Below, piece by piece: positions 16,069 through 23,974 of a DNA stretch of 31,000 nucleotides; position 1 is the first letter of the stretch; each line of letters begins with the position of its first letter. The notes under the pieces were generated by a model. The model saw nothing but the letters and a program-made list of their open reading frames with translations, made no database searches and was not told the DNA's origin. The DNA is from a virus, in IMG/VR virus record IMGVR_UViG_3300023210_000142, positions 1 to 31,000 of that record. The stretch is one strand, 5' to 3'. The position numbers and the translations under genes were made by a program.

Positions 16069-17235
16069 TTAACGAATAGAGTATTTCCCTATGTTTGGCT
16101 TACTCTTAACCATTGTAACGGCATACCTCAAGCTATCTATTGCGTGGTTATGATTATCAATAGGCTTGTTAAGAAGATGTCCGTTCTTATCCTCTACCCA
16201 TTTATAATTGTTGAACTCAGCTATCAGGTTGGTTGATTTGCTCGTTACCTTTAAATTAAATCGCTTCAGCAAGTCAATACCTATGTTGATGCTATCCTTA
16301 CCTTTTACACATGGTTTAATGTTGTAGCCTAGTCTATATATTTCTTCGATAGATTTTGGCTCGCTACTGTCTGCAAAAATAGGTCTTCGTCTATCAAACC
16401 CAAAAGCACCCATTCGCTTAGCAATGTCAGAGTTAGTGAGATTTCGTTCATATATTAATTCATTAAATATTAATGAGCCTTCCTGCTCGTACACTTCTAT
16501 TAATGCACTCGGATCGTTTGTGAATCCAAAATCTAAACCAGTACTAATTAAGGTTGCGCCCTCAGGTACTTTGCCGATGATAGTAACTTTAGGAAAGATA
16601 ATTGCTTTTGAGAACCCTCTCTCCCCTAGTCCGTATATCTTCCAATACTCTTCATCTGTATCTCTAAGCCTCTCAATCTCGCTTACAAGCTCATCAGCTA
16701 AAAAAGGATTATCTAAGTAGGTAGATTTAATGAATGTGCAGTCATTTCTTGTAAGCACTTTGTCATATATCCAATGGTGAGAATCAGAAGGGTTAAAATC
16801 TATATATACTTTCTCCTCTGTTCTTACTATCAACTGGAAGAAATCCTCCCAAGTTAATTCGTTTGCTTCATTGCAAAATAGAAAGTGCCTCTTTGTACCT
16901 CTCTTCTTTTGTGGTTGGTCTAAGGAAAGGAACTCAAACACATTACCGTTGAGCTTATAAGTATGATCAGATTTATTATGGTCTGCCTCATCATACAAGC
17001 CTAAGTTATTTAGTATCTCAAAGAAGTCTTTCATTACTGAGATTTTCAAACTCGGTAGGGACTTTCTAACGATACTAAAATGCTTATTGGTATTCTCGAA
17101 TGCTTTAACGATTAAGAGCTGGCATAGTGAATAGGTTTTACCTGAACGAGTACCACCTTGATTTACTACAATCTTAGTCTTTGCGTTATAGTTACGCTCG
17201 AATACGTTACTCGTTTTTATCTTTAGGCTTGACAA
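16069..17235 (-). CDS. terL: Terminase large subunit, 388 aa
   Basis: DNA-packaging motor of the PBSX/terminase_3 type. Walker A is GGTRSGKT (27-34); Walker B with catalytic Glu is in HFLFCNEANEL (about 117-127). The C-terminal RNase-H-like nuclease shows its aspartates in STGLDFGFTNDPSA, PIFADSSEPKSIEEI and NHAIDSLRYAV. Length is slightly short for the family but all motifs are present. It starts inside the small-terminase gene (29-nt overlap). The terminase branch suggests headful or cohesive-end packaging; the circularly closing assembly is compatible with either. Confidence 0.95.
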   Translation of the reverse strand: MSSLKIKTSNVFERNYNAKTKIVVNQGGTRSGKTYSLCQLLIVKAFENTNKHFSIVRKSLPSLKISVMKDFFEILNNLGLYDEADHNKSDHTYKLNGNVFEFLSLDQPQKKRGTKRHFLFCNEANELTWEDFFQLIVRTEEKVYIDFNPSDSHHWIYDKVLTRNDCTFIKSTYLDNPFLADELVSEIERLRDTDEEYWKIYGLGERGFSKAIIFPKVTIIGKVPEGATLISTGLDFGFTNDPSALIEVYEQEGSLIFNELIYERNLTNSDIAKRMGAFGFDRRRPIFADSSEPKSIEEIYRLGYNIKPCVKGKDSINIGIDLLKRFNLKVTSKSTNLIAEFNNYKWVEDKNGHLLNKPIDNHNHAIDSLRYAVTMVKSKPNIGKYSIR

Positions 17236-17819: not shown

Positions 17820-17899
17820 AGCATTAGTGTAAACATAGCGAATAGTATATGAAATATAATAAACGCTCCTACTATTATTATCTTATCTTTCTTTGTCAT
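17816..17899 (-). CDS. Tiny single-span membrane protein, 27 aa
   Basis: ATG at 17899 overlaps the ParB-like stop as ATGA, and its own TGA overlaps the HNH start as ATGA. Sequence MTKKDKIIIVGAFIIFHILF then AMFTLML: a basic start and one hydrophobic helix covering most of the protein. Double coupling suggests real translation. Function unknown. Confidence 0.5.
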   Translation of the reverse strand: MTKKDKIIIVGAFIIFHILFAMFTLML

Positions 17900-18351
17900 A
17901 TACTAGCACCGCAGCATTCACATACATCTTTAGTTGCCTCTTCTAAGGCATTATCTTCGTACTTATCTAGGTTTATATTCAAATCATTAACGGTAAACCC
18001 TACATCGAATAATAGCTCCTCATCGAAATAGTTCAGGAGTAAATCATCATCAAATTTACCACCGTTCTTATTCAAGCGTAAATTAAGCTCCATCTCTTCA
18101 TTGATTGGTAAATCTAAAACAACGCAAGCAATAGTATCGTTTCCTAAATCTAACCAAGCTCGTGAGCGTTGATGCCCTCCTATAATTACATTATTCCTAT
18201 CCTTACTGGAGTTAATTATAATAGGATCAATTAAGCCGAACTTCTTTAAACTAGCCTTTAAATCTTTGAACTGCTTTTTGTTTATTGTTCTTGGATTATA
18301 CTCAGCGAATTTAAGCTCGCTAATCTTCCTGCTTTCTATTATCATACGCAT
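17896..18351 (-). CDS. ParB/Srx-like N-terminal domain protein, 151 aa
   Basis: Residues 1-100 match the ParB/Spo0J-like nucleotide-binding fold: KISELKFAEYNPR (about 9-21), FGLIDPIIIN, and the signature VIIGGHQRSRAWLDLG (about 55-70). The C-terminal part is acidic and ends in CECCGASI. In phages such proteins accompany methyltransferases or terminases, with CTPase or nuclease activity proposed. Partitioning is unlikely without a ParA. It overlaps the zinc-ribbon gene by 32 nt. Confidence 0.8.
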   Translation of the reverse strand: MRMIIESRKISELKFAEYNPRTINKKQFKDLKASLKKFGLIDPIIINSSKDRNNVIIGGHQRSRAWLDLGNDTIACVVLDLPINEEMELNLRLNKNGGKFDDDLLLNYFDEELLFDVGFTVNDLNINLDKYEDNALEEATKDVCECCGASI

Positions 18352-18709
18352 TTAATATCTCTTTTAAATCGTTTATCGTTTGTCTTACACAAGTACCACA
18401 ACTTGAAACCTTCTTATTCATTCCAAATATCTCGTTGTATAGATTGGTGATACCTACATTCTCATCGTGCTTAACTTTATCTGAGCCGATTTGCTTTAGT
18501 AATCGCCTCAAAATAGATAGTTGATCTTTCGTAAGGTCGTTTTCTCTTTCCCACTTACCAATAGGACACCGAGTAAATGCAATCGCTCCTTTAATTTTCA
18601 TAAAGCAACCACATTTTTTACATTGGCTTACTGACTTTCTGAAGTGTTTACACCCTCTGCAGATAGCCATTCTTTCATTATAGGTTCTATTACTTGTCTT
18701 TAACTTCAT
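18320..18709 (-). CDS. Zinc-ribbon protein, 129 aa
   Basis: N-terminal zinc ribbon CRGCKHFRKSVSQCKKCGC followed by MKIKGAIAFTRCPIGKWE, then a helical region and a second Cys pair in SSCGTCVRQTINDLKE near the end. The pattern is common in flavobacterial phages close to terminase genes. Probably a nucleic-acid-binding or regulatory protein. The start lies inside the sigma-factor gene (20-nt overlap). Confidence 0.7.
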   Translation of the reverse strand: MKLKTSNRTYNERMAICRGCKHFRKSVSQCKKCGCFMKIKGAIAFTRCPIGKWERENDLTKDQLSILRRLLKQIGSDKVKHDENVGITNLYNEIFGMNKKVSSCGTCVRQTINDLKEILNAYDNRKQED

Positions 18710-19208
18710 CCTTTATATAATTCCTTACATTTTTAATCGTGTGAAATATGGAAGTTGTAGAGATGCCAGTTGCTTGGGCTAGGCTTCTAATAGAGTGATC
18801 TGTTTCATAGTAAACTTTAAATAGAGTTTTATCATAGAAGTGTAAATCTTTCATAGCCTCGTTAATCTGTGAGAGTTTACGCTCGAATTCTATCTTATCG
18901 GGTATGCCATCGTAATCAAATGCAAAACCCTCTACATCTTTGTAATCATTCTTACCGATTATATGATGCTTCTTTTTGAAATCTGAATTACTTCTGAGGT
19001 ATTGATTGAGCATAACTCTTGCTGCCCAAAACTTGAGATGACCGTTGCTATATATAGTGGTCAGCTTATCCTTATCGTATTCTAGCATTATCACATACAC
19101 CTCTTGCGTGAGGTCTTGTGCATCTAAATCGTTGCCCTTAGTTATTTTAAAGGCTATTTCGTAAAGCTCGTTATAATGTTTGGCTAACTTTTCGCTTAAT
19201 TGTTCCAT
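18690..19208 (-). CDS. Sigma-70/ECF-like RNA polymerase sigma factor, 172 aa
   Basis: Region 2 is clear: YEIAFKITKGNDLDAQDLTQ then EVYVIMLEY (about 17-44), with a following FWAARVMLNQYLRS helix that matches the -10 recognition part. The C-terminal end (SIRSLAQATGISTTSIFHTI, about 133-152) is a helix-turn-helix like region 4. It likely redirects host polymerase to phage late promoters. It precedes the packaging and structural genes, whose operons carry a shared non-host motif. Confidence 0.8.
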   Translation of the reverse strand: MEQLSEKLAKHYNELYEIAFKITKGNDLDAQDLTQEVYVIMLEYDKDKLTTIYSNGHLKFWAARVMLNQYLRSNSDFKKKHHIIGKNDYKDVEGFAFDYDGIPDKIEFERKLSQINEAMKDLHFYDKTLFKVYYETDHSIRSLAQATGISTTSIFHTIKNVRNYIKDEVKDK

Positions 19209-20177: not shown

Positions 20178-20405
20178 TTACTCTTGTTTTAGTTCTTTGA
20201 GCTTATGCTTTAAAGCATTGATAGGGACTATCCCTGTTTCTTTCTCTATTGAAAGTATTAACTCCAACTCCTCGATTACTCTTTGGTTGGCTACTTCTTC
20301 TATGCGGTCATTTATTGTCTCGATTATTGATGTTCTAAAAGACTCATCTAACATACTTAGCTTGTAGGCTAATCTTGTTTTTGTATCTAATTCTTCTGCT
20401 TTCAT
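20178..20405 (-). CDS. Hypothetical helical protein, 75 aa
   Basis: Highly charged, all-helical prediction (MKAEELDTKTRLAYKLSMLD ... ALKHKLKELKQE). No motif recognised. It is coupled to the preceding 31-aa membrane ORF through an ATGA-type overlap and is followed by the repeat-rich non-coding region. Confidence 0.6.
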   Translation of the reverse strand: MKAEELDTKTRLAYKLSMLDESFRTSIIETINDRIEEVANQRVIEELELILSIEKETGIVPINALKHKLKELKQE

Positions 20406-20497
20406 ATCTTAGTTTTTAGTTTATTATCAATTCTCAGCAGCATTACTACTATGAATGTGAATCGGATAATATCGGTTAGTATCTGTAAGTCTGTCAT
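20402..20497 (-). CDS. Tiny single-span membrane protein, 31 aa
   Basis: ATG at 20497, TGA at 20402 overlapping the next ATG. Sequence MTDLQILTDIIRFTFIVVML then LRIDNKLKTKI: an acidic N-terminus, one hydrophobic helix and a basic C-terminus. It lies immediately after the structured RNA region. Function unknown. Confidence 0.45.
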   Translation of the reverse strand: MTDLQILTDIIRFTFIVVMLLRIDNKLKTKI

Positions 20498-20514
20498 ATC
20501 TCTTGTTTTAGTTG

Positions 20515-20725
20515 GTTGAATCGCAGAGGGTAAGTTCCCACCACCCTCTACTTTCAACGCTTGACTTCACCTAAGCTCCCCAGCTTAGGATTTCTTGCCT
20601 AGCGATTTTACTTACTAGGACTTTTCACTATATGCCCAACTCACGCTTGGTACTCTCGTATGTTTGCCTATCGTACTGAAATTAAACCTTTTTAGGTTTC
20701 GATAGGGCTTGGGTGCAGCGTTCAA
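20515..20725 (-). ncRNA. Putative structured RNA of about 210 nt, multi-stem
   Basis: Non-coding, less AT-rich than its surroundings, and packed with inverted repeats. They are AGAGGGT/ACCCTCT (20525..20531, 20543..20549), a perfect CCTAAGCT/AGCTTAGG with 4-nt loop (20570..20589), CCTAG/CTAGG (20598..20619), and CCTATCG/CGATAGG (20667..20673, 20700..20706) enclosing AAACCT/AGGTTT (20684..20699). The ends can close by TTGAA-t-CGC with GCGTTCAA (20516..20524, 20718..20725) or AACGCT/AGCGTT (20556..20561, 20717..20722). The direction is taken from the neighbouring genes. No known RNA family was recognised; no ORF explains it. Confidence 0.55.
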
Positions 20726-20949
20726 GTGGCTTGCTCTCTTTTACTAATCAATATATCCGCAGCATTCTCAAAGGTGCTATCTGTAAAATGTTTATCTCCA
20801 GTTAATTCTAACACCTCAAACGCTTGTGGGTTTTGGTTATACTTACACTCTCTAAATAGTAGTTGTGCAATAGTTTCTTTTAATGGTTTCTTGTTTAGGT
20901 ACGCAGCTTTAGTTCCTTGCTGAATCACCCACTTTTCAAATGCAGTCAT
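20722..20949 (-). CDS. Hypothetical protein, 75 aa
   Basis: MTAFEKWVIQQGTKAAYLNK ... HFTDSTFENAADILISKREQ. A small soluble helical protein with no recognised domain. It is preceded by a TATATTTG box. Its stop codon lies within the first strand of the structured RNA element, which ties its translation to RNA folding. Confidence 0.65.
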   Translation of the reverse strand: MTAFEKWVIQQGTKAAYLNKKPLKETIAQLLFRECKYNQNPQAFEVLELTGDKHFTDSTFENAADILISKREQAT

Positions 20950-20964: not shown

Positions 20965-20972
20965 CAAATATA
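20965..20972 (-). promoter_or_regulatory. Promoter -7 box (TATATTTG)
   Basis: TATATTTG on the minus strand, followed by GTAAAAACAAAAAGATATG, 16 nt before the 75-aa gene. It shares the AAAACAAAA leader seen before other early genes. A clear -33 element is lacking. Confidence 0.5.
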
Positions 20973-20980
20973 CAAATAAT

Positions 20981-21325
20981 TTATAGATTGAAATAATTAT
21001 CAATCACTTCTTTTGCTTGATCGAACCCGGTGCATACTACTGCTAGATAACCTCTTTCGTTTAACCGTTCTATCCATTTTCGTTGATATTGGCTAGGGTA
21101 GTTTCCTTTTACCTTCAGCTCGATCGCTAGACCGCAATATCCTCCTTTAGTTTCGTAGATGAATACATCGGGGAAACCTGCTACATATCCGTTTCGTTTA
21201 GCCTTCATTCGTTGCGAGTGGTAGCGTTGGTATTGACCGCCTAGAGAAGCACAATAAAGAGCTTTGTGTTCCATTCGCAAATAGGTGATTACTGCAGTTT
21301 GTAATTTATCCTCTTGTGCTTTCAT
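20981..21325 (-). CDS. VRR-NUC family nuclease, 114 aa
   Basis: Complete VRR-NUC (PD-(D/E)XK) domain as in standalone phage Holliday-junction-type nucleases: an N-terminal helix, then the metal site Asp53 in AGFPDVFIY, Glu69 and Lys71 in GLAIELKVKG, and Gln81 in QYQRKWIERLNERGY. It probably resolves branched DNA during replication or packaging. It overlaps the upstream 51-aa ORF by 20 nt. Confidence 0.9.
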   Translation of the reverse strand: MKAQEDKLQTAVITYLRMEHKALYCASLGGQYQRYHSQRMKAKRNGYVAGFPDVFIYETKGGYCGLAIELKVKGNYPSQYQRKWIERLNERGYLAVVCTGFDQAKEVIDNYFNL

Positions 21326-22313: not shown

Positions 22314-22345
22314 TTTTGTTTTTGTAAATATAAAACTATTTTTTA
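22314..22345 (-). promoter_or_regulatory. Early promoter region, exact 32-bp repeat copy A
   Basis: Identical over 32 bp to 23979..24010. Minus strand carries AATAGTTTTATATTTAC followed by AAAAACAAAA and then the start of the 226-aa gene. The -7 box reads TATATTTA, one base off the consensus. Confidence 0.6.
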
Positions 22346-23974
22346 TATATCGTATATCTTTTTAAATAATTCAACCAACACATTAACGGTAATAGAGTTA
22401 CCTGCTTGTTTATAAAGTTGTGTATCTGAATTAACTTTTTGAGCCTTATAAAACTCTTCATCTGTAAATCCTTGTAATCGCCAGCATTCTAAAGGTGTGA
22501 GTCTTCTTATGCGTTTATTTGTTTGGTAATAACCTTGTTCACTGGTTTGTAGAGTTGGACTAATACCTTGGTCACTATACAATCTTGAAGAACTCTCATA
22601 AGTACTTATCTCTTTACTTATCTCAGTTACCTCTTTATCGTATTTATCACTAAAACCTAATACAGTTTTTAGTTTAAACCATACTTCAGCATTTGGTATA
22701 GCTCTTGACTTATCTGTTCTAAAATAATGCTCAACTTTTGTCTTAGGCAAATCAATACTCTCAGCTATTTGTTTTATCGTTCCTTTCTTATTAGCCTTTA
22801 GAAACTTATTGATTTCAACAGGTGTATCATTAACTCTTTTTTCAACAACTAACTTTAAATCTTCTAGTCTTTTTATTTCAGCTACTTGTACATTCCTTCT
22901 TTCGCATCCAGCATCTAAGCAAGGTGCTAGCCCATTTATATCATAAACTCTGTTTTGTTGATAGGGTTGTTTACCTCCACTTTCTTTTGATTGGTTTAAT
23001 TGTTTTACTTCTATAGCTTGATTGTTGCCTTCAAATATATGGCTGCAACTACTAGCATTTACTCTTGTGGTTATAGTTGGAGTAACATCTTTATGAATAG
23101 TTTGATTGTAACTATCCATAAAATCACCTTTTTCTAACTCGTCTTTATGTTTTTCATAGTTTTGATTTAATCTTTTGTTGTTGGTTTCTATAATAGTATT
23201 ATCAGTAGGACAAAGAGCTGCATTAGCCCTTAAACAATTTGCAATATCATCACCACTTTTAGGTTGCCACTTAAACCCCGTTCCTTTATCTTCGTGTCTT
23301 TCCTTGTGTCTATTAAAACCATCTATCATCTTTTGACTTAAATAATACTTCTCAGGAACATCATCCTCTAATAAATCTTTCAATGTTATATCTAACGGAA
23401 GCTCTTTAGGAAATCTAAACTCTCTCCAATTCCTAAAACCTACTATAAATATTCTTTCTCTGTTTTGAGGAATACCATAATCCTTTGTATTTAAAACTTT
23501 AGTATAAACGTGATAACCTAAACCATCTTCAATACTATCCATTCCCATTTGACTATTCAATGTGCCACCACCATTTGTTAGAACATCAGTAATAGTTTGA
23601 AATGTTTTACCACTATCGTGTGATAATAACCCTTTAACATTTTCAAGTATAAAACATTCAGGTTGATTAATCTTAATGAACTCAGCTACATTGAAAAATA
23701 AAGTTCCTCTAGTCTCATCAAATCCTTTTCGCTTGCCTGCTAAACTAAATGATTGACAAGGAAATCCAGCAACATATAAATCGAGTTTAGGCACTTCTGA
23801 ATGATTGCGCGTAGTTATGTCGTTGTAAAAGGTTGTAGGGTTGTGAAGCTCGCTAAACGATTTTCTTGCGTGCTTATCAATCTCACAAGCAAACACCTCT
23901 TCTATTTCTATTCCTAATCTCTTTAATGCTGATTCAGGAGAACCAATACCACTAAAATCTGTTCCTACTTTCAT
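22343..23974 (-). CDS. C5 DNA cytosine methyltransferase, 543 aa
   Basis: Motifs in order: SAM site FSGIG (7-11), GFPCQSFS with nucleophile Cys73, ENVKGLL (111-117), QNRERIFIVG (170-179), then motif IX/X RRLTPLECWRLQGF (490-503) and QAGNSITVNVL (523-533). The recognition region (about 185-490) is long for the family. It contains an inserted helix-turn-helix (KGTIKQIAESIDLPKTKVEH, about 398-416) and three G..P.L-type segments (300, 350, 473). No partner restriction gene was seen, so self-protection against host restriction is the likely role. Confidence 0.95.
   Translation of the reverse strand: MKVGTDFSGIGSPESALKRLGIEIEEVFACEIDKHARKSFSELHNPTTFYNDITTRNHSEVPKLDLYVAGFPCQSFSLAGKRKGFDETRGTLFFNVAEFIKINQPECFILENVKGLLSHDSGKTFQTITDVLTNGGGTLNSQMGMDSIEDGLGYHVYTKVLNTKDYGIPQNRERIFIVGFRNWREFRFPKELPLDITLKDLLEDDVPEKYYLSQKMIDGFNRHKERHEDKGTGFKWQPKSGDDIANCLRANAALCPTDNTIIETNNKRLNQNYEKHKDELEKGDFMDSYNQTIHKDVTPTITTRVNASSCSHIFEGNNQAIEVKQLNQSKESGGKQPYQQNRVYDINGLAPCLDAGCERRNVQVAEIKRLEDLKLVVEKRVNDTPVEINKFLKANKKGTIKQIAESIDLPKTKVEHYFRTDKSRAIPNAEVWFKLKTVLGFSDKYDKEVTEISKEISTYESSSRLYSDQGISPTLQTSEQGYYQTNKRIRRLTPLECWRLQGFTDEEFYKAQKVNSDTQLYKQAGNSITVNVLVELFKKIYDI

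What the first reader, a model, noticed from the sequence alone, without database searches (positions are those of the whole stretch)
20515..20725. Unexplained multi-stem structured RNA in a phage early region
Seen: within 210 nt there are at least five separate inverted repeats, including a perfect 8-bp hairpin with 4-nt loop (20570..20589) and a compound stem (20667..20706). Three closing helices compete for the same strands: 20515..20520 with 20553..20558, 20556..20561 with 20717..20722, and 20516..20524 with 20718..20725. No ORF accounts for it and its base composition stands out from the AT-rich surroundings. The stop codon of the upstream gene lies in its first strand. Inference: a phage non-coding RNA or a translation-coupled RNA switch. 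I recognise no published RNA family.
Basis: partly seen in the sequence, partly recalled or inferred. Interest (0 to 1): 0.72.

Follow-up and report, generated by a model that had tools for sequence, protein, structure and literature searches.

The report
New modular structured RNA in phages
The odd stretch of folded sequence is one copy of a real and apparently undescribed family of modular RNA found in well over a hundred uncultured phage loci; its job is unknown, and it was not found in 85,000 bacterial genomes or in cultured phages.

Summary
The structure is real, but it lies on the MINUS strand, co-directional with its genes, and is one copy of an RNA family that Rfam 15 lacks. Its order is (M hairpin - P2 hairpin)n - P2b - linker AGUCA(A)GYG - P3. 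The window has two M-P2 units, then P2b and P3 (20738-20515). M is a 25-nt hairpin (GWGAGY..RCKWGARY..C). I found 239 copies in 184 held records, about 125 distinct loci (a lower bound), and none in 85,000 GTDB genomes or 50,697 phage records searched with family sequences. Covariation is strong: 57 distinct M-P2 units score 0.598 against 0.188 +/- 0.016 shuffled (0/500). The 8-bp hairpin (P2b), compound stem (first P2) and P3 outer stem are family elements. The two long-range 'competing' closing helices are not kept in relatives, so the switch reading is weakened. Where whole records were searched the RNA forms one locus per phage. It fills the interval between a stop codon and the next start, at an operon head, inside, or near its end; tRNAs can take the place of P2. 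My best guess is a self-contained noncoding RNA domain on polycistronic phage mRNA, probably a multivalent binding platform. Rivals: put-like antiterminator; leader for small membrane-peptide genes. Function is undetermined.

The parts
20714..20738 (-). M1 hairpin module (A' type) GAGAGCAAGCCACUUGAACGCUGCA; stop codon of the upstream ORF lies in its loop
   Evidence: CM R1 match 36.8 bits, E 2.5e-7; covariation
20663..20711 (-). P2 of unit 1: compound stem AAGCCCUAUCG..AAACCU/AGGUUU..CGAUAGGCAAA (the finding's 20667-20706 stem)
   Evidence: near-identical P2 in sister phage L281 and in L032, L044, L045; P2 covariation
20633..20657 (-). M2 hairpin module (B type) GAGAGUACCAAGCGUGAGUUGGGCA
   Evidence: CM R1 match 42 bits, E 1.2e-8; same module in 46 sequences distinct over 110 nt
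20598..20619 (-). P2 of unit 2: CCUAG..CUAGG
   Evidence: bp 4-6 of P2 show 17, 30 and 18 double compensated rows of 57; A1 alignment
20570..20589 (-). P2b: 8-bp hairpin CCUAAGCU-GGGG-AGCUUAGG (G-rich loop)
   Evidence: in L002-L005, L101, L179, L124 with base changes such as CCUAGAC/GUCUAGG
20559..20568 (-). J3 linker GAAGUCAAGC (family consensus AAGUCAGYG)
   Evidence: independent scan for AAAGTCAGYGTTGAAAGT: 14 of 16 hits carry M and P2 just upstream
20515..20558 (-). P3: long terminal hairpin GUUGAA..GAGGGU-GGUGGGAACUU-ACCCUC..UUCAAC
   Evidence: P3 segments of relatives fold as one long hairpin with variable stem sequence, mean z -3.65 over 62 parsed segments
20495..20515 (-). unpaired A-rich leader CCAACUAAAACAAGAGAUAUG ending at the start codon of the next ORF
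   Evidence: same layout in relatives
20402..20497 (-). 31-aa ORF MTDLQILTDIIRFTFIVVMLLRIDNKLKTKI with one predicted membrane span
20722..20949 (-). 75-aa ORF upstream, no Pfam match; overlaps M1 by 17 nt
   Evidence: 81% identical homologue in L281, which also carries M-P2-P2b-P3 behind it
20965..20972 (-). TATATTTG, match to the Bacteroidetes -7 box TAnnTTTG upstream of the 75-aa ORF (possible promoter of the transcript)
   Evidence: sequence; box position -12 to -5 from PMC9723704; in L007, L008, L030, L032, L180 the same motif sits directly before M

Best explanation
Shown: a sense-strand structured RNA, made of repeated and exchangeable domains, that takes up the whole untranslated interval between two genes of a polycistronic phage gene block. 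Inferred: it is a self-contained noncoding RNA domain that works as RNA rather than as a switch for one particular gene. It is co-transcribed with the early/middle genes and may be released by processing. Its repeated M loops and the GGGA-type loops of P2b and P3 would be binding or tertiary-contact sites for a phage or host partner. Adding or removing M-P2 units, or putting a tRNA in place of P2, changes valency without destroying function.
For: Covariation: 57 distinct M-P2 units score 0.598 against 0.188 +/- 0.016 shuffled (0/500) and at most 0.13 when slid; P2, whose pairing at bp 4-6 was not used for selection, has 17, 30 and 18 double-compensated rows there. Wobble pairs are U-G on the sense strand: at M 6-23, C-G 26, U-G 15, U-A 7 and C-A 1 of 49. 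One cluster per phage in the 13 of 24 records with a hit. 238 of 239 M copies lie outside same-strand ORFs of 80 aa or more. Where both flanking genes are in view they are co-directional with the RNA in 79 of 94 loci. Context varies while the RNA stays: beside terminase at the head of the opposite operon (L003, L086, L089, L097, L141, L237), inside replication genes, or near the end of an operon followed by opposite-strand genes (L105, L107, L109, L121, L125, L152). Downstream genes are not conserved. M copies number 1-4 per locus, and P2 can be absent or replaced by a tRNA (L002, L004, L254). Sister phage L281 has one unit where the window has two.
Against: No expression data. No own promoter or terminator recognised in most loci, and strong co-directionality with neighbours, which a cis role would also give. 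M often starts within -17 to +10 nt of the upstream stop codon and P3 ends shortly before a start codon, which hints at a cis role. The downstream gene is a tiny membrane peptide more often than expected (29/118 against 4.3% in a rough control). No binding partner is known.
Confidence: 0.45

Rival explanations
1. Cis-acting antitermination or anti-pausing RNA, like HK022 put: the M-P2 hairpins bind the elongating RNA polymerase and let it read through terminators or untranslated stretches downstream.
For: In 14 loci the upstream neighbour is an opposite-strand gene; where tested it is the terminase small subunit, so the RNA heads the outgoing operon, the place where put and nut sites sit. In L007, L008, L030, L032 and L180 a TAnnTTTG box puts the predicted start one base before M (box position from PMC9723704). 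HK022 putL lies just downstream of its early promoter and consists of two stem-loops (PMC9378689).
Against: Several loci lie near the 3' end of the operon, followed by opposite-strand genes, where antitermination would serve little. 4-6 hairpins instead of two. TAnnTTTG directly upstream is not clearly enriched overall (6 of 125, background 2.2% per window). No NusG-domain gene in 16 of these phage records, so no phage NusG paralogue as helper.
Confidence: 0.2
2. Intercistronic leader that controls translation or stability of the next gene, often a tiny membrane peptide, and is coupled to ribosomes ending at the stop codon in or next to M.
For: Stop codon inside M1 in the window; of 84 loci with an upstream ORF ending within 150 nt, 43 have the stop between 17 nt inside M and 5 nt before it. 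TM-like ORFs of 60 aa or less follow in 29 of 118 loci against 4.3% of control gaps. The A-rich unpaired stretch before the ATG fits Bacteroidetes initiation (PMC6847099).
Against: Downstream genes are otherwise unrelated and most loci do not have the peptide. The long-range competing helices are not conserved. Stop positions differ (-17, -8, 0, +5) without a fixed register.
Confidence: 0.22
3. RNA processing or protection element: M hairpins bracket structured inserts (hairpins, tRNAs) and mark where the transcript is cut or shielded.
For: M lies 2-4 nt from tRNA ends in L002, L004 and L254 and separates modules throughout.
Against: Many loci have a single M with no tRNA; no nuclease is linked; M is too short for a typical RNase III site (general knowledge).
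Confidence: 0.1
4. The structure works as DNA, for example as a replication origin or recombination site.
For: Often next to DnaB, DNA polymerase A or nuclease genes; modules are exchanged between phages.
Against: Sense-strand bias and U-G wobble; no GC-skew change at the site in the window; tight packing between stop and start codons.
Confidence: 0.03

Closest known systems
GOLLD and ROOL RNAs
   Same: phage-encoded structured noncoding RNAs of unknown function, often near tRNAs; tRNA sometimes inside the GOLLD linker region (PMC12286853)
   Different: no Rfam match; far shorter (about 110-225 nt here against 659 nt and more than 800 nt); built of repeated M-P2 units; placed between genes of polycistronic blocks
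HK022 putL/putR antiterminator RNA
   Same: short stem-loops in phage transcripts, in some relatives at the head of an operon
   Different: more hairpins, other positions as well; antitermination untested; no direct sequence comparison with put was made
CsrB/RsmZ-type sponge RNAs
   Same: several hairpins with GGA/GGGA-like loops (P2b, P3, some P2)
   Different: M loops lack GGA; a CsrA search hit only E. coli, B. subtilis and T. maritima among 14 control genomes, not the Bacteroides control, and not this record

Membership tests
any Rfam 15 family | score at or above the family's gathering threshold | tested here: not met
   window: 0 matches; best in 20400-20800 is mir-BART16 at 17.6 bits against 100; relatives give only tRNA at gathering scores
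GOLLD / ROOL | match to the Rfam covariance model | tested here: not met
   also an E <= 2 search of seven relatives
GOLLD / ROOL | phage origin with tRNAs nearby or inside | tested here: met
   viral contigs; tRNA matches next to M in L002, L004, L097, L131, L158, L254; none in the window itself
GOLLD / ROOL | multimeric RNA cage | not testable with these tools
   needs cryo-EM or native gels
HK022-type put RNA | about 70 nt forming two stem-loops | tested here: not met
   window element about 225 nt with 6 hairpins; M-P2-P2b-P3 in most relatives
HK022-type put RNA | downstream of an early promoter | tested here: inconclusive
   true in a minority (TAnnTTTG before M in 6 of 125; operon head beside opposite-strand genes in 14), not in others
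HK022-type put RNA | antitermination by binding the RNA polymerase beta' zinc-binding domain | not testable with these tools
   needs in vitro transcription
CsrB/RsmZ sponge | most hairpin loops carry GGA and the host has CsrA | tested here: inconclusive
   GGGA-type loops in P2b/P3 and some P2 only; CsrA not in this record and not among the control hits for Bacteroides; host unknown
tRNA / tmRNA | ARAGORN hit in the element | tested here: not met

The most novel reading that the evidence does not exclude
A new class of phage noncoding RNA in which a recognition hairpin (M) and interchangeable structured inserts, hairpins or unusual tRNAs, are chained in varying number and act in trans on a host or phage partner during infection of Bacteroidota.
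Probability: 0.3. Interest if true: 0.85.

Novelty: new variant of a known kind. Interest (0 to 1): 0.62.

Why it matters
A covarying RNA family in more than a hundred distinct uncultured phage loci, with one locus per phage where whole records were searched, unknown to Rfam and not found in cultured phages or GTDB genomes, shows that phages of (probably) Bacteroidota carry an undescribed RNA device. Its modular build, with units added, lost or replaced by tRNAs, makes function testable by domain swapping, and it could show how these phages control long transcripts in hosts that do not rely on Shine-Dalgarno sequences.

Tried and rejected
Chance inverted repeats: rejected by covariation. Coding region: rejected, 238 of 239 copies outside same-strand ORFs of 80 aa or more. 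Long-range closing helices and the switch built on them: present in the window and possible in some A-type relatives, impossible in B-only relatives. Host prophage or bacterial origin: two exact scans of 85,000 genomes found nothing, nor did blastn of an A-B-P3 query in INPHARED beyond one 30-base chance match. Own transcription unit in every locus: TAnnTTTG before M in only 6 of 125. CsrA sponge and NusG-paralogue (LoaP-like) partner: no CsrA in this record and no NusG domain in 16 phage records. Origin of replication: no skew change in the window. Considered and left open for lack of a test: docking of the KWGA loop of M into the invariant CCU/AGG base of P2. Failed searches were input errors. 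The first M scans constrained M, so M's near-invariance there is partly selection; the J3/P3 scan was made to check this. Relatedness among sequences was reduced only by removing identical units, and ORF calling was crude.

Full report
What is in the window. The genes around it are on the minus strand: VRR-NUC nuclease 20981-21325 and C5 methylase 22343-23974 upstream in transcription; sigma-like 18690-19208, DUF6171, ParB-like 17896-18351 and terminase 16069-17235 downstream. The terminase is closest to phages of Bacteroides and Parabacteroides at about 40% identity, so the host is probably in Bacteroidota. No tRNA and no Rfam match.

How relatives were found. An exact scan for the 20-base P2b hairpin gave four viral contigs, which showed that a much wider stretch on the minus strand is conserved. 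A 25-nt hairpin, here called M, stood out: GWGAGY-A-NNN-loop-NNN-RC. With 80 loci found through the VRR-NUC gene, the held records contain 239 M copies in 184 records, 49 distinct sequences, in 125 clusters that are distinct over about 61 nt. In 257 billion bases of bacterial and archaeal genomes the two exact patterns were not found, and blastn of a family query in 50,697 phage records gave only a 30-base chance match.

Architecture. Downstream of M comes P2, a hairpin with the frame AAGUCCU..AGGCAAA and variable inner pairs; then P2b, usually with a G-rich loop; then a linker AAGUCAGYG; then P3, a long hairpin with a GGG-containing loop in most members; then an A-rich unpaired stretch and a start codon. 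The window has two M-P2 units followed by P2b and P3. The sister phage L281, whose 75-aa upstream protein is 81% identical, has one M-P2 unit with a P2 almost identical to the window's first one, then its own P2b and P3. An independent scan with a linker/P3 pattern that says nothing about M gave 16 stretches; 14 have M and P2 just upstream (one of them, L280, by eye), and the other two are chance matches. A second kind of 3' domain exists in other phages, a GGGAGG..CCUCCC hairpin with a conserved (U/A)UGGUCGUC.

Covariation. On 57 distinct M-P2 units, 95.9% of cells pair (72.4% shuffled); the covariation score is 0.598 against 0.188 +/- 0.016, 0 of 500 shuffles reach it, and slid registers give at most 0.13. 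M pairs 8-22, 9-21 and 10-20 were required to pair when M was collected, so their score is partly built in; P2 pairs 4-6 were not, and show 17, 30 and 18 double changes. P2b and P3 change sequence while keeping their hairpins. At M pair 6-23 the types are C-G 26, U-G 15, U-A 7 and only one C-A, which fits an RNA read from the sense strand. The long-range helix between M1 and the start of P3 (AACGCU:AGCGUU) is possible in some relatives with an A-type M, but in relatives that have only a B-type M the linker is unchanged and no pairing is possible; I count it as unsupported.

Context. 79 of 94 loci with both neighbours in view are co-directional with them; of the rest, 14 (counting contig-end cases) have an opposite-strand upstream gene, and where tested this is the terminase small subunit, so the RNA heads the operon that leaves in the other direction. 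Others lie inside blocks of replication genes (DnaB helicase, DNA polymerase A, nucleases), or near the end of such a block with opposite-strand genes following. Searches of 24 whole records found hits in 13, always in one cluster. M often starts at or inside the upstream stop codon, at different offsets, and P3 ends shortly before the next start. The next gene is a tiny membrane peptide in 29 of 118 loci against 4.3% in a rough control, otherwise varied. In a clade with the VRR-NUC gene and no 75-aa ORF, TATATTTG stands right before M; with the box at -12 to -5 (PMC9723704) the transcript would start one base before M. tRNAs sit beside M in several phages and can replace P2 (L002, L004, L254).

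Reading. The RNA nature and the family are shown by covariation. The function is not shown. Because the RNA stays the same at the head, middle and end of operons while the next gene changes, a self-contained RNA domain fits better than a switch for one gene; because it is always packed between genes and co-directional with them, cis roles (put-like antitermination, translation-coupled leader, processing site) stay open. Without transcript data I give the first 0.45.

Noticed in passing
L097, L140, L141, L154, L156, L158; L002, L004, L005, L139: tRNA genes next to the RNA are unusual: ARAGORN reports four-letter anticodons (8-nt anticodon loops), and some Rfam tRNA matches are 119-144 nt long, with inserts in the anticodon or variable region.
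   Followed up: partly
L102, L105, L107, L114, L115, L215, L217, L239 after M: Second 3' domain: hairpin GGGAGG-UUAAA..(A/U)UGGUCGUC..CCUCCC, with a Shine-Dalgarno-like strand in phages whose likely hosts are thought not to use such signals.
   Followed up: no
window 20402-20497 and the ORF after the RNA in L011, L088, L094, L166, L241, L281 and others: Tiny single-span membrane peptides (25-35 aa, sometimes with a charged tail) of several unrelated sequences follow the RNA.
   Followed up: partly
L002, L086, L088, L166, L187 upstream of M: Further conserved hairpins upstream of M: GUAGUACGUGAUACUAC, GUAACAAGUCGGUUAC, and GCAGUUAAACUCUAAUAAUCUCAGAUACUGC..ACAAAACCUGAGAG.
   Followed up: partly
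window 18690-19208: Weak sigma-70 region 2 and helix-turn-helix matches just after the RNA in transcription order, with homologues downstream of it in 22 loci of the VRR-NUC clade; may be a phage sigma factor.
   Followed up: partly
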